DNA from: an uncultured Nitrospirales bacterium
GTDB taxonomy: Bacteria; Nitrospirota; Nitrospiria; Nitrospirales; UBA8639
NCBI GenBank assembly: GCA_958295805.1
Contig: OY282373.1
Location: 1,397,001 to 1,461,000, forward strand
Direction: 5' to 3'
DNA length: 64,000 nucleotides
This document shows, piece by piece, positions 28,590-39,259 of this stretch. The notes below the pieces were generated by a model. The model searched no databases and was not told the DNA's origin. It saw only the letters and a list, made by a program, of their open reading frames with translations. A program made the position numbers and the translations under genes. Within the stretch, counting starts at the first letter, position 1; the number at the start of each line of letters is the position of its first letter.

Positions 28590-29897
28590 TTAGCGGGGGG
28601 GGTGCGAGACAGGAGAGGAGGGGGGGTGTCTCCAGCGGTTCCAGGGGTGGTCTGGGGAGGGTTTGTACTTGGGGCGTTTGCGTTGGAGCCCACGGGCGGT
28701 GTCGACGGTTCGGTGGAGGCTCTTCTCGTCGTCCACCGGGATGGGAGTTGGGCCTTGGGCGAGGATGCGGTAGTCGAGGGTCTGGCCCTGACATAACAGG
28801 GTGACGCGACCGTCGAAGTCCTCGCACACGGTGACGGGGCTTGAGCGCAGGCGGTAGCCCCTGCCTTGGTTCAAGACTTGGTATTCCCTGTTGCGGTATC
28901 TCAGGGTGAGGTTGCGGCTCAGCTTGCGGGTGGAGTGGCAGCTCACGATGAGGTCGAGGGAATCGGGGTCGTGCAGCACTGGGCGGTGGGCGTCGTGGGG
29001 GTTGTGGGGCGGGCGGGCGAAGCGGCGGTTGTGGTCAGCCATGTACTTGGGCACGAAGGCATTGGCCTCGTTGATGGAGTGGATGCCGCAAAGGCGCAAC
29101 TCCTTGACCAAGCGGTCCTGGAGGGTCTCGTTGGCCCGTTCCACCCGGCCCTTGGCCTGGGGGGTGTTGGCGTGGATGGGTTGGATGTCCAGGGTTTGAA
29201 GCGCCCGGGTGAACTGAGTCCGTTCGCCCTCGCGGTCCTGTTGAGTGACCCGGAAGATGCTGTGCTTGTCCGAATAGATGGCCACCGGACGACCGTACTG
29301 GTCCAGATACCCGCGCAGGGTCCTCATGTAGGCTTCGGTGGTCTCGGCCTCGACGAAACGCAGGGCCATGAGCCGGCTGGTGGCGTCGTTGATGAACACG
29401 ATCAGGGTGCACGACGGCCCCCGCTCCTCGAACCATCGGTGCGGCGAGCCGTCGATCTGCACCAACTCGCCCACGGCCTGTCGCCGGGGACGGCTGTGAT
29501 GCACCCGCATCCCCCGGCGCTTCTTCGACCGCCACAGCCCCGCTGCCGCCATCCACTTGCGCAAGGTCTCCACCGACACCCGGTAGCCATGCACCTCCCA
29601 CAGCTTCTCCCAGGCCAGGGTCGGTGAAAAATCTTCGTAGCGCTCCCGCACCACCGCCAAGATCTCTGCCCGAACCTCCGGCGCTATCGCGTTGCTCGCC
29701 TTGCGCCCCCGATGCCCCGAAATCAGCCCCTTCGCCCCCAACTCCCGGTAGCGCCGCACCAGCCGCTTCACTTGCCGCACACTCAGCCTCAACCGCTCCC
29801 CCGCTTCCCGTTGCACCAGCCGCTTCCCCACGACCTCCCGGATCACTTCCAGCCGGTCCACCTCGCGCATGGTCATCCCCTCTTCTGGCTTCGCCAT
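28590..29897 (-). CDS. DDE transposase, ISNCY family
   Basis: 435 residues. The N-terminus is a helix-turn-helix (REVVGKRLVQREAGERLRLSVRQVKRLVRRYRELG) followed by a second DNA-binding segment (SPTLAWEKLWEVHGYRVSVETLRKWM). The rve-like catalytic core has Asp in GELVQIDGSPHRWFEERG, Asp in VAIYSDKHSIFRVT and Glu in GRVERANETLQDRLVKELR, a standard DDE set. A C-terminal beta domain (YRNREYQVLNQGRGYRLRSSPVTVCEDFDG) matches ISNCY/ISTde1-type transposases. AAGGGGG precedes the ATG. No frameshift or stop is visible, so it looks active. Composition is richer in G/C than the neighbours, as expected for a recent arrival. Confidence 0.92.
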   Translation of the reverse strand: MAKPEEGMTMREVDRLEVIREVVGKRLVQREAGERLRLSVRQVKRLVRRYRELGAKGLISGHRGRKASNAIAPEVRAEILAVVRERYEDFSPTLAWEKLWEVHGYRVSVETLRKWMAAAGLWRSKKRRGMRVHHSRPRRQAVGELVQIDGSPHRWFEERGPSCTLIVFINDATSRLMALRFVEAETTEAYMRTLRGYLDQYGRPVAIYSDKHSIFRVTQQDREGERTQFTRALQTLDIQPIHANTPQAKGRVERANETLQDRLVKELRLCGIHSINEANAFVPKYMADHNRRFARPPHNPHDAHRPVLHDPDSLDLIVSCHSTRKLSRNLTLRYRNREYQVLNQGRGYRLRSSPVTVCEDFDGRVTLLCQGQTLDYRILAQGPTPIPVDDEKSLHRTVDTARGLQRKRPKYKPSPDHPWNRWRHPPSSPVSHPPR

Positions 29898-33801: not shown

Positions 33802-33831
33802 TTGACTCGTATTTCGGGCACTGCCTAGAAT
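33802..33831 (+). promoter_or_regulatory. Promoter of tRNA-Gly
   Basis: TTGACT (33802-33807) and TAGAAT (33826-33831) are 18 bases apart, about 26 bases before the tRNA 5' end. Confidence 0.6.
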
Positions 33832-33856: not shown

Positions 33857-33931
33857 GCGGGTGTAGCGCAGTGGTAGCGCATCGGCTTCCCAAGCCGTTG
33901 GTCGGGGGTTCGAATCCCCTCACCCGCTCCA
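33857..33931 (+). tRNA. tRNA-Gly, anticodon CCC
   Basis: 75 bases folding as a full cloverleaf: acceptor GCGGGTG with CACCCGC, D arm GCGC/GCGC, anticodon stem around loop TTCCCAA (anticodon CCC), variable TGGTC, T arm with TTCGAAT, discriminator T and encoded CCA. The first anticodon-stem pair appears to be T-T, a mild irregularity. CCC decodes GGG glycine codons. Confidence 0.95.
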
Positions 33932-34018
33932 ATCCTTCCTGCACAAAGTCGTAGACTATTAACAACGAAAAAAGAGAAACACTTGCGGGTCACGTCGATG
34001 GATACGCAAACTACCAGG

Positions 34019-36001
34019 ATGAGAATTACCATGTCTGCGACGTTTTTTGTTGGTCTTGTCGTGGCGCTGGTTGGTCTATCTGCCTGCCAACGGGAAGAAA
34101 GCCCGCCGCTTGCACCGCCACCGCCTGAGGTGAAAGTGATGACCGTTACTGCAAAAACCATACCCGACGACGAAGAATTTATTGGTCAGACCGAGTCGTT
34201 CCAGCCGATTGAGGTTCGGTCGCAGGTGACGGGAATTATCAAGAAAGTCTTTTTTACCGAAGGCCGTGACGTGCGTAAAGGCGACAGGCTCTATCGTATC
34301 GATCCCGTTCCGTTCAGGGCGTCGGTCATTAGTGCCAAAGGTCAAGTTGGTCAGGCTCTGGCTCGATTGGCGCGGGCTCGTGCGGAGTTGGCGCGCGTCA
34401 AGCCGTTGCTCGCTGAACAGGCGGTCAGCCGGAAAGACGTCGATAATGCAATTGCAGAAAAATTTTCGGCGAAATCCGCGCTGGTCACGGCAAAGGGCAA
34501 TTTGGAGAAAGCAACGTTCGATTTACGAAATACGCTCATTGTCGTGCCAGTGGCGGGACGACTCGGACGGAGTCGATTGTATGAAGGACAGTTGGTGTCG
34601 GCTCAAACCGATCTTCTCACGAAGATCCATCAAATGGATCCCATCTACGTCACCGTCAACGTGCCGGAGATTCACATTCTTCGGCGGCGCCAGGATCTGG
34701 CGGCACGTCGCGTGGAATTGCCGAATCTGTTTCAACTGAAAGGGATCATGACCATGGCTGACGGCACGATCTATCCCCACGAAGGCACGTTGGATTTTGC
34801 CTTGGTGGAAAATAACGACCTGAAACAAGCCGTGGCGGCCATTGAAGAATTTGAGGCGAGGCTTTCCGAGGCACGAACCGGGTTCATCCCGCAAATAGAA
34901 GCCAATGCCAAGTTTCCGGCCCTGGGCCGAACCGCTGGCGGATTTCGCGTGGATGGGGTGCCCGGTGACGCCAGCTATTCCTTACGAGGCAACCTGGCCT
35001 GGGAACTTGACGTGTGGGGCCGTCTTCGTCGATCAACGGAAACATCGCGTGCCGAACTGCTGGCCAGAGAAGAAAACCGGCGAGCGGTGGTCCTTCGACT
35101 GGTCAGCGGAGTGGCGCAAGCCTATTTCGATCTGTTGCAATTCGACATGCAAGTGGATATCGCGAAACGCACGCTCCAATCTTGGGAAGAATCAGTCAGA
35201 ATCGCCGAAGCCCGCCTCCGCGGCGGGATAACCGCCAGGTTGGACGCCGACCAGTTTGAAGCTGAGCGGGCGAATGCCGCTGCACGAGTGGCTCGATTTA
35301 CGCGCATGATGATTCAGAAGGAAAATGAGTTGAGTGTGTTGTTGGGAAAAAATCCAACGAATATCCAACGGGGCAAATCGTTGACGGAACAGGTGATGCC
35401 GCCTGACGTTCCGGCCGGATTGCCTTCGGAGCTGCTTCAGCGACGGCCGGACGTGTTGCAGGCGGAGCACGTATTGGCCGCGGCCACGGCCAGAATCGGG
35501 GTGGCAAAAGCGGCGCGATTTCCAAAAGTGACGCTGACGGGGATTCTTGGAGTGGCCAGCCCACGTTTATCGAACCTGTTGACCTCCGAAGGGACGTTCG
35601 GCAACTCAGGTTTTGACGTAGCCGGGCCGCTGCTCAACGCGAACGCCCTGGGCTTTCAGCAAGACGCGGCCGAGGCCCGGGCGCGGCAAAGCCTTGCGCA
35701 ATACCAACAAACGATCCTTGTTGCGTTCAAAGAAGTGGAGGATGCGTTAGTGGCCGTTCACACCGCACGAAAACAGCGTCACGCTCAAATAGAACAAGTT
35801 GAGGCGTTACGTTCAGCGTTACGACTGGCCAATTTACGGTACCGTGGAGGCGTCACGAATTATCTTGACGTACTCATTGCCAAACGGAGTCTGTTCGACG
35901 CGGAGTTGGCGCTCACGGAGACGCATCGTCTGCACCTGGTTTCGGTCGTTCAACTGTACAAAGCGTTAGGCGGCGGGTGGTCGGATAATTCTTCGGCGTA
36001 G
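34019..36001 (+). CDS. Fusion of an RND efflux adaptor (MFP) with a TolC/NodT-type outer-membrane factor
   Basis: About 660 residues; starts at 33983, 34019 or 34031 are all possible, and each keeps the lipobox LSAC. Residues to ~262 are an adaptor protein: VMTVTAKTIPDDEEFIGQTESFQPIEVRSQVTGIIKKVFFTEGRDVRKGDRLYRID (lipoyl and barrel halves), a helical hairpin (ARLARARAELARVKPLLAEQAVSRKDVDNA) and YVTVNVPEIHIL. At about 34800-34815 it switches in mid-domain (GTLDFALVE then NNDLKQAVAAIEEFEARLSEARTGFIPQIEAN) to an outer-membrane factor: LAWELDVWGRLRRSTETSRAEL, VVLRLVSGVAQAYFDLLQFDMQ, ELLQRRPDVLQAEHVLAAATARIGVAKAARFPKVTLTG. The adaptor's C-terminal part, the whole RND pump and the factor's start are missing. 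It may be a real in-frame deletion or an assembly collapse. Confidence 0.9.
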   Translation: MRITMSATFFVGLVVALVGLSACQREESPPLAPPPPEVKVMTVTAKTIPDDEEFIGQTESFQPIEVRSQVTGIIKKVFFTEGRDVRKGDRLYRIDPVPFRASVISAKGQVGQALARLARARAELARVKPLLAEQAVSRKDVDNAIAEKFSAKSALVTAKGNLEKATFDLRNTLIVVPVAGRLGRSRLYEGQLVSAQTDLLTKIHQMDPIYVTVNVPEIHILRRRQDLAARRVELPNLFQLKGIMTMADGTIYPHEGTLDFALVENNDLKQAVAAIEEFEARLSEARTGFIPQIEANAKFPALGRTAGGFRVDGVPGDASYSLRGNLAWELDVWGRLRRSTETSRAELLAREENRRAVVLRLVSGVAQAYFDLLQFDMQVDIAKRTLQSWEESVRIAEARLRGGITARLDADQFEAERANAAARVARFTRMMIQKENELSVLLGKNPTNIQRGKSLTEQVMPPDVPAGLPSELLQRRPDVLQAEHVLAAATARIGVAKAARFPKVTLTGILGVASPRLSNLLTSEGTFGNSGFDVAGPLLNANALGFQQDAAEARARQSLAQYQQTILVAFKEVEDALVAVHTARKQRHAQIEQVEALRSALRLANLRYRGGVTNYLDVLIAKRSLFDAELALTETHRLHLVSVVQLYKALGGGWSDNSSA

Positions 36002-37634: not shown

Positions 37635-37799
37635 TCACTTCGGTTTGACGCAGATCGACGGGTCTGGTTGCTTGACGGCGGAGAAGATGGCGCGGGCGGC
37701 CTTCTCCGGTGTGGCGTCAAGCTTGATGATGCGGGTTTCGGGACGGCCACGTTTGCGGGTGACGGCCTTCGGATCGCCCTTCTTCTGTGCCTTGCTCAT
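37635..37799 (-). CDS. Small basic KRGRPE-motif protein (54 aa)
   Basis: 54 residues too short for many gene callers: MSKAQKKGDPKAVTRKRGRP, then ETRIIKLDATPEKAARAIFSAVKQPDPSICVKPK. The KRGRPE segment resembles an AT-hook, suggesting DNA contact. Its ATG overlaps the stop of the HNH gene (TCATG on the plus strand), so it is translationally coupled to it. Similar short proteins occur in phage-like gene sets in my recollection; no function is assigned. Confidence 0.7.
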   Translation of the reverse strand: MSKAQKKGDPKAVTRKRGRPETRIIKLDATPEKAARAIFSAVKQPDPSICVKPK

Positions 37800-38446
37800 G
37801 GTTCAATGTCTCCAAAGTAGCGATTCAGGAAGTCGTAAACTTGACGCTTTTGCTCCTCTGACGACGACTGGACGATCGCGACGACGTTCAGCCAGCCGGT
37901 CTCGTCGTCCCAGTAGTTCTTCTTCATGACCTGGTGACGGCCACACAGTGGTTGCCACTTTGTTGGGTCTTTGGGGTCTATCTCAGCATGAAGGGCATGA
38001 GGCGTCTTGTGGTCCGGTGTGAGGCAAACCGTTCCGCCTCCTACCGGGTCGATATCTCCCTTACGGAGACCGCACGTTATTCCACCTTCGGACCATGCGC
38101 AACGATAACCATGTTCTTCTAGCACTCGATTCCATGTGGCGGCATTTGGCCGGGTTCGGCGAGAGGCCGTACTGCGTTGTTCGGCATCGGGCATCATGTA
38201 TTCGCTGGCCCGTAAGTCGCCACGGTTTCGCCATGAGAGTATCGTATATCCCTTGTCCGTCCGAAGCTCGGACAGTCGCTGGTGCCAGTTCTCCGGCACG
38301 CGGCCCGTCTTTGGGTCCGTGGCGACCTCGATCAACTGCTCCCTCGTCACGACCTTAGCCAAATTGTCGAGAAAGAATGCTTCGATGCGTGCGCTGATCG
38401 ACCGCTGGTTGTACGGTCCCTTGATGACCGCGTTCCTATCGTCCAT
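37796..38446 (-). CDS. HNH endonuclease-like protein, probable restriction enzyme partner
   Basis: 216 residues. The N-terminal ~80 resemble a winged-helix domain (SARIEAFFLDNLAKVVTREQLIEVATDPKTGRVPENWHQRLSELRTDKGY). The second half is an HNH-type zinc module: HGYRCAWSEGGITCGLRKGD and CLTPDHKTPHALHAE, then PLCGRHQVMKKNYWDDETG. It overlaps the DNA methyltransferase gene by 11 bases on the same strand. A type II restriction pair is therefore the most likely reading, though cognate specificity cannot be read. A phage-type HNH nuclease is the alternative. Confidence 0.75.
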   Translation of the reverse strand: MDDRNAVIKGPYNQRSISARIEAFFLDNLAKVVTREQLIEVATDPKTGRVPENWHQRLSELRTDKGYTILSWRNRGDLRASEYMMPDAEQRSTASRRTRPNAATWNRVLEEHGYRCAWSEGGITCGLRKGDIDPVGGGTVCLTPDHKTPHALHAEIDPKDPTKWQPLCGRHQVMKKNYWDDETGWLNVVAIVQSSSEEQKRQVYDFLNRYFGDIEP

Positions 38447-39239
38447 GGCGGATGTGATGCTTTGCGAATCGATTGCGCGTCATGGTCAGATATTCCGGTG
38501 AGATGTCACAGAGAATCCCATTGCGATTCAGCCGTAGACAAGCCTCGCCCGTCGTCCCGGAGCCGCACATGGGGTCCAACACGGTATCGTCCTCCTTCGT
38601 TGTCATCAGCAAGAGCGGCTCGATGACGGACAGCGGTTTTTGCGCGGGGTGTCCCGTCTGTTCATCCCGACCAACGAACCCGATATTCAAAGGGGCTTCT
38701 AGGACTGAAGGCGGCCCCGGCACAAACCGCATTTTCCCGGACTGCCATCGTTCAAGCTGTTCATCGTTCAGAAAATGCTCCGGGTAAGTCGGCGCATCCT
38801 TGACGCTCAGATGGAGGCAAGCGTTTTGGGAGGACCTCCAGCCGCGGATCACGGAGGGGCAGTTCTTGTAGAACCACGTGAGCCATGAGACCAGCCCGAA
38901 TCCATTAGGTATGTTGACAATCTGGCGGGCAAGAATTTCAGGGAACCCCCACACAAAAACGTGACGTGATACCCGACATGCCGACTGGATTACCTCTGCC
39001 AGCCAGTCGTCATAGTCCTCACGTTCTCCCCCAAGACCCTTGTTGTACCAAGGGTCGATAATGACGGTAGTGACCTTCGGTACAGACGACAGCGTGTCAA
39101 GAACGTCGGCAGGTGCAAGGACTTCAACGTTGGCGCGTGTACAGTCGTCACGCGAGATACCGCCCTTCACGACGCGCTTCTTTGTTTTGCGCGTACCGGC
39201 CCATGGCAATTCAGCCTCCGGTGCCTCGGCTTTCGCCAT
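38436..39239 (-). CDS. Site-specific DNA methyltransferase (beta-class order)
   Basis: 267 residues from the ATG at 39239. The catalytic motif is IIDPWYNKG (a DPPY-type variant, residues ~60-68), and the SAM-binding motif comes later: DTVLDPMCGSGTTGEACLRLNRNGILCDIS (~220-250). Motif IV before motif I is the beta-class order used by many N6-adenine or N4-cytosine enzymes. HPAQKPLSVIEPLLL precedes motif I as usual. DPWY rather than DPPY/SPPY is unusual but occurs. It leads a three-gene overlapping set with the HNH protein and the small basic protein. Confidence 0.88.
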   Translation of the reverse strand: MAKAEAPEAELPWAGTRKTKKRVVKGGISRDDCTRANVEVLAPADVLDTLSSVPKVTTVIIDPWYNKGLGGEREDYDDWLAEVIQSACRVSRHVFVWGFPEILARQIVNIPNGFGLVSWLTWFYKNCPSVIRGWRSSQNACLHLSVKDAPTYPEHFLNDEQLERWQSGKMRFVPGPPSVLEAPLNIGFVGRDEQTGHPAQKPLSVIEPLLLMTTKEDDTVLDPMCGSGTTGEACLRLNRNGILCDISPEYLTMTRNRFAKHHIRHGR

Positions 39240-39259
39240 GTCGCACACTCCCTTCCTAG

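What the first reader, a model, noticed from the sequence alone, without database searches (positions are those of the whole stretch)
34019..36001. Adaptor-outer membrane factor fusion with the RND pump missing
One open frame carries an MFP lipoprotein up to ~residue 262 and then, in mid-domain, a NodT/TolC-like factor. In normal operons the adaptor C-terminus, a pump gene of ~3 kb and the factor's signal peptide lie between. Either a ~4-kb in-frame deletion made a chimeric protein with an adaptor hairpin on the factor's periplasmic N-terminus, or assembly collapsed.
Basis: partly seen in the sequence, partly recalled or inferred. Interest (0 to 1): 0.65.

Follow-up and report, generated by a model that had tools for sequence, protein, structure and literature searches.

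The report
Efflux operon remnant: in-frame deletion fusion
A 3.8-kb in-frame deletion in a Nitrospira-like bacterium removed a multidrug pump gene and joined the start of its adaptor gene to most of its outer-membrane channel gene; this is most likely a decaying leftover of an efflux operon that its relatives keep or have lost completely, not a new machine.

Summary
A single open frame (34019-36001, 660 aa) holds a MexA/AcrA-type adaptor lipoprotein to residue 261 and then a NodT/OprM-type outer membrane factor lacking its first ~65 residues. Seven congeneric genomes have adaptor, AcrB-type pump and outer membrane factor at the same site (after tRNA-Gly-CCC). Alignment to them puts the junction at 34799-34801, a 3-bp GCC present at both intact breakpoints; the missing stretch is 3810-3813 bp, a multiple of three. 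The genome is one 2.90-Mb contig, the breakpoints share no long repeat, and no relic of this pump remains elsewhere, so a real deletion is much likelier than assembly collapse. The fusion was seen in no other Nitrospirota genome searched. Six congeners lack the operon, apparently by several independent losses, so it is dispensable and the fusion is probably one more step of loss. Selection is ambiguous: the adaptor half shows doubled dN/dS on this branch (0.21 against 0.11), the factor half does not (0.16 against 0.15), and the frame has no stop. A recent deletion explains this; retention of the factor half for a surviving pump is a possible but unproven alternative. Interest is low.

The parts
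33857..33931 (+). tRNA-Gly (CCC) directly upstream; shared anchor of the locus in the congeners
   Evidence: ARAGORN (relatives); blastn synteny
34019..36001 (+). fusion open reading frame, 660 aa plus stop (open upstream to TTG 33983)
   Evidence: single uninterrupted match, no stops
34019..34087 (+). adaptor's signal peptide and lipobox LSAC with Cys23; the only export signal the fusion has
   Evidence: read directly from the translation; aligned to congeners' adaptors
34019..34801 (+). adaptor-derived part, residues 1-261: lipoyl halves, hairpin and part of the beta-barrel; membrane-proximal domain missing
34307..34528 (+). adaptor alpha-hairpin (residues 97-170), tip sequence RVKPLLAEQAVS kept
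   Evidence: only well-predicted part of the adaptor half (block pLDDT 61-86); sequence
34799..34801 (+). deletion junction: GCC shared by both intact breakpoints (Ala261)
   Evidence: alignments to intact operons
34802..36001 (+). outer membrane factor-derived part (NodT/OprM type) without signal peptide, lipid-anchored Cys and N-terminal segment
35003..35023 (+). ELDVWGR, counterpart of the OprM ELDLFGR motif, intact
   Evidence: sequence; importance of the motif in PMC4790312
35966..35980 (+). LGGGW, C-terminal factor motif, intact
   Evidence: sequence; PMC4790312

Best explanation
The open frame is the remnant of an ordinary HAE-1 type RND efflux operon (adaptor, AcrB-like pump, NodT-type outer membrane factor). 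An illegitimate deletion of about 3.81 kb, at a 3-bp GCC microhomology, took out the adaptor C-terminus, the whole pump and the factor's first ~65 codons, and happened to keep frame (one chance in three). The fused gene keeps the operon's upstream region and the adaptor's lipoprotein signal, so it may still be made. Without the pump and the adaptor's pump-binding end it cannot work as a tripartite pump, and it is most likely a recent step in the loss of an operon that this genus loses repeatedly. Shown: operon origin, same site, junction, size, absence of the pump from the genome, recurrent absence in relatives. Inferred: that the fused product is dispensable and that the deletion is recent.
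For: Same-site intact operons in seven congeners, with flanking genes in order. Junction and length from alignment, 3810-3813 bp, no long repeats at the breakpoints. The lost pump is gone from the complete genome: the best match is a 47%-identical paralogue in its own complete operon. Six congeners lack the operon. At five of their sites the tRNA and flanking genes are present with no tblastn trace of the three proteins; in the tree operon-less genomes are nested among operon-bearing ones. No match covering both halves in 395 Nitrospirota genomes. dN/dS of the adaptor half is raised on this branch: 0.213 (95% interval about 0.14-0.32) against 0.106, 2dlnL 7.9. Controls tyrS, 36696 ORF and lpxD show no significant rise.
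Against: The frame is free of stops and frameshifts over 660 codons, and the factor half shows no rise in dN/dS (0.159, interval about 0.11-0.23, against 0.146). If neutral for 5% of this branch, about 1.7 stops would be expected (P of none about 0.2); at 12%, about 4 (P about 0.02). Decay must therefore be recent, or something keeps the frame open. No expression data.
Confidence: 0.78

Rival explanations
1. Retained factor: the deletion turned the adaptor's first 261 residues into a new lipidated N-terminal extension, and the factor half is still exported, forms a trimeric channel and serves another pump of the cell, so only that half is under selection.
For: Open frame; unchanged constraint on the factor half while the adaptor half is relaxed; motifs ELDVWGR and LGGGW intact; the adaptor signal peptide supplies export. 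PMC4790312 reports that OprM's N-terminal portion is an addition relative to TolC and that the deletion 29-36 had almost no effect.
Against: The three remaining RND loci each have a factor-like gene of their own, so no pump obviously needs it. The intervals for the two halves overlap, so one recent neutral period fits both. The fused adaptor attaches near the equatorial domain and could disturb folding. Found in one genome only.
Confidence: 0.13
2. Assembly artefact: the true chromosome has an intact adaptor-pump-factor operon and the assembler lost about 3.8 kb.
For: Reads and coverage are not available; the fusion occurs in one assembly only.
Against: Single 2.90-Mb contig with 99.85% completeness; no repeat at the breakpoints longer than 8-9 bp within 150 bp; intact flanks; the in-frame junction and the relaxed adaptor half are not expected of an artefact.
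Confidence: 0.06
3. Selected chimera with a new job: adaptor hairpins tethered to the factor gate or plug its channel, or dock on a foreign pump, giving a two-component outlet.
For: Hairpin and its tip sequence RVKPLLAEQAVS are kept, and the hairpin is predicted with moderate to high confidence.
Against: The adaptor half is the one with raised dN/dS. The membrane-proximal, pump-recognising part is gone (PMC4446572). Tip-to-tip docking needs the adaptor far below the equatorial domain to which it is now tied (PMC4790312 for the docking mode). No relatives share it.
Confidence: 0.03

Closest known systems
MexAB-OprM / AcrAB-TolC type HAE-1 RND tripartite efflux operons
   Same: Adaptor, pump and NodT-type factor in this order are the intact state in seven congeners; both halves of the fusion belong to these families
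   Different: Pump gene, adaptor membrane-proximal end and factor N-terminus are deleted; two subunits are in one frame
Natural fused dimeric adaptors (DSY0927) and two-adaptor pumps (TriABC), reviewed in PMC4446572
   Same: Efflux subunits joined, or doubled, in natural systems
   Different: Those join or pair adaptors with each other and keep the pump; here an incomplete adaptor is joined to an outer membrane factor
Alpha-proteobacterial outer membrane auxiliary proteins that carry an MFP helical domain (PMC2850547)
   Same: Adaptor helical region in an outer membrane export protein
   Different: Different outer membrane protein family, a conserved ancient exchange in many species; here a one-genome end-to-end fusion by deletion

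Membership tests
RND periplasmic adaptor (MFP, TIGR01730) | Lipoprotein signal, lipoyl/hairpin/beta-barrel core matching the family model | tested here: met
   136 bits against cutoff 94.9, but only profile 1-214 of 322; lipobox LSAC read directly
RND periplasmic adaptor (MFP, TIGR01730) | Complete beta-barrel and membrane-proximal domain at the C-terminus | tested here: not met
   Ends at mature MexA residue 225 of 360; congeners' adaptors go on for about 130-150 more residues
Outer membrane factor, NodT family (TIGR01845) | Family core with both repeats | tested here: met
   307.8 bits against cutoff 210, profile 66-460; PF02321 1e-42
Outer membrane factor, NodT family (TIGR01845) | Own signal peptide, lipidated Cys and N-terminal segment | tested here: not met
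   Profile positions 1-65 absent; OprM mature 1-53 absent; present in congeners
Tripartite RND efflux system | Pump gene in the operon or its close copy elsewhere in the genome | tested here: not met
   No copy; best is a 47%-identical paralogue in another complete operon
Functional gene fusion | Shared by diverged lineages and kept by selection after the fusion | tested here: not met
   Only one genome of 395 Nitrospirota listed a match covering both halves; selection on the fused state cannot be separated from recency
Functional gene fusion | Expressed, exported, folded protein | not testable with these tools
   Structure model too weak (mean pLDDT 47); no expression data

The most novel reading that the evidence does not exclude
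The fusion is a working outer membrane channel that carries a truncated adaptor as its lipid-anchored periplasmic N-terminus and serves other pumps: a natural adaptor-factor fusion with only the factor half under selection.
Probability: 0.12. Interest if true: 0.5.

Novelty: new member of a known kind. Interest (0 to 1): 0.17.

Why it matters
As a deletion remnant it is a clean snapshot of how a bacterial efflux operon is lost: seven congeners keep the operon, six have lost it at the same site, and this one has lost only the middle. It also warns annotators that an open frame with two good domain hits need not be a designed fusion. If the protein proved functional it would be a natural adaptor-channel fusion, which I did not find described in the papers searched, and a test of how much of an outer membrane factor's N-terminus is dispensable.

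Tried and rejected
Structure prediction of the fusion (A2, 29 rows) and of an intact factor (A3, 12 rows) gave mean pLDDT 47 and 49; the permitted alignments were too shallow, so docking and fold searches were not attempted. Plasmid tblastn hits covering both halves looked like possible fusions; the two opened are separate genes in the order factor, adaptor, pump, and the rest were not opened. Long 'open frame' values for some relatives are stop-to-stop lengths, not fusions. The idea that an orphan pump needs the fused factor was weakened: the other RND loci each have a factor-like gene nearby.

Full report
What is there. The frame at 34019-36001 encodes 660 aa and a stop; it stays open upstream to a TTG at 33983. 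Residues 1-261 are a MexA/AcrA-type adaptor lipoprotein with lipobox LSAC. Residues 262-660 are a NodT/OprM-type outer membrane factor that begins at about profile position 66. Against solved structures, the adaptor part stops at mature MexA residue 225 of 360, inside the beta-barrel and before the membrane-proximal domain, and the factor part starts at mature OprM residue 54.

The intact state and the junction. The window lies in a single-contig genome of 2,904,372 bases, 99.85% complete. The nearest named relatives are Nitrospira and Nitrospirales. Of 13 congeneric genomes held, seven carry the operon as separate genes: adaptor 407-417 aa, pump 1054-1059 aa, factor about 464-490 aa; in G004 the operon is split over two contigs and its pump was not read. 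They are at the same place where contigs allow it to be seen: tRNA-Gly(CCC) upstream, and the 36696 ORF, lpxD and further genes downstream in order. Aligning both halves to the congeners puts the junction at 34799-34801. The adaptor side reads ...GATTTTGCC/GGG..., the factor side ...AACGTC/GCCTTGG..., the fusion ...GATTTTGCCTTGG.... GCC is shared. The deleted length is 3810 bp against L053 and 3813 bp against the others once one base of BLAST end-trimming in L054 and L055 is allowed for; both are multiples of three. Within 150 bp of the breakpoints the longest shared word is 8-9 bp and not at the junction. This fits an illegitimate deletion at a microhomology and gives an assembler no repeat to collapse.

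The pump is gone. A search of the whole genome with a congener's pump finds only paralogues (47, 29 and 23% identity) at loci with their own adaptor and a factor-like gene. Nothing suggests that the deleted piece moved elsewhere.

How rare, and where in the tree. In a draw of 395 Nitrospirota genomes no other listed match covered both halves. Six congeners lack the operon. In five of them tyrS, the tRNA and the downstream ORF are present around the empty site with no tblastn trace of the three proteins; in the sixth (G001) the site is cut by contig ends, but no operon was found in the genome. In a tree of tyrS plus the 36696 ORF, operon-less genomes G005/G012, G001 and G010 sit among operon-bearing ones, and G000 branches near the base of the genus (some nodes weakly supported). 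If the operon was present in the genus ancestor, it has been lost several times, and the fusion is a partial loss.

Selection. I fitted codon models with one or two dN/dS values on the eight operon-bearing or fused genomes. On the G000 branch the adaptor half has 0.213 against 0.106 elsewhere (2dlnL 7.9); the factor half has 0.159 against 0.146. Controls are flat or not significant: tyrS 0.096/0.081, 36696 ORF 0.087/0.075, lpxD 0.265/0.188 with 2dlnL 2.5 on six genomes. Profile intervals are about 0.14-0.32 for the adaptor and 0.11-0.23 for the factor. Four other terminal branches tested as foreground for the adaptor showed no gain of comparable size. If the gene had been neutral for a fraction f of the branch, the adaptor implies f of roughly 4-24% and the factor 0-10%. 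The absence of stops allows f up to roughly 5-8% (P of no stop 0.19 and 0.07; lower if indels are counted at an assumed rate). One recent neutral period of about 4-5% fits all three. So does selection on the factor half alone. The branch is long and synonymous sites are near saturation, so this is indicative only.

Mechanism. From established knowledge of these pumps, the adaptor's C-terminal membrane-proximal part recognises the pump (Elkins and Nikaido 2003, cited in PMC4446572), and adaptor domains are built from both N- and C-terminal elements, so cutting at residue 261 leaves an incomplete barrel. The factor loses its signal peptide, lipid anchor and N-terminal segment but gains the adaptor's signal peptide. 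OprM's extra N-terminal portion is absent from TolC, and the deletion 29-36 had almost no effect on function (PMC4790312), so a folded factor core is conceivable. The motifs ELDVWGR and LGGGW are intact. Without a cognate pump the chimera cannot be a tripartite efflux system. My best reading is a recent remnant (0.78); a retained factor is possible (0.13); assembly artefact 0.06; a chimera with a new job 0.03.

Verdict. It is ordinary operon decay with an accidental open frame, worth recording but of low interest unless expression or further strains show that the fused protein is kept.

Noticed in passing
37796-39248: Two adjacent minus-strand genes between the 36696 ORF and lpxD: a DNA methyltransferase (PF01555, 38436-39248) and a 216-aa gene with no Pfam hit that looks by eye like a restriction endonuclease partner. 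In congeners such as L053 the flanking genes lie about 90 bp apart, so this looks like an inserted restriction-modification pair.
   Followed up: partly
28590-29897: Transposase-like gene with helix-turn-helix domains (HTH_32, HTH_28) about 4 kb upstream of the fusion; no sign that it took part in the deletion.
   Followed up: partly
L053:140-2155: Some congeners (also G010 at its empty site) have between the tRNA side and the operon a gene for a 671-711 aa NDH-2-like oxidoreductase with cyclic-nucleotide-binding and CBS domains; it is absent at this site in the window.
   Followed up: no
33802-33831: Promoter-like TTGACT-18-TAGAAT just upstream of the tRNA-Gly, in a stretch conserved in congeners (85-88% identity); it may drive the tRNA and read into the operon. 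Not above chance by the scan alone.
   Followed up: no
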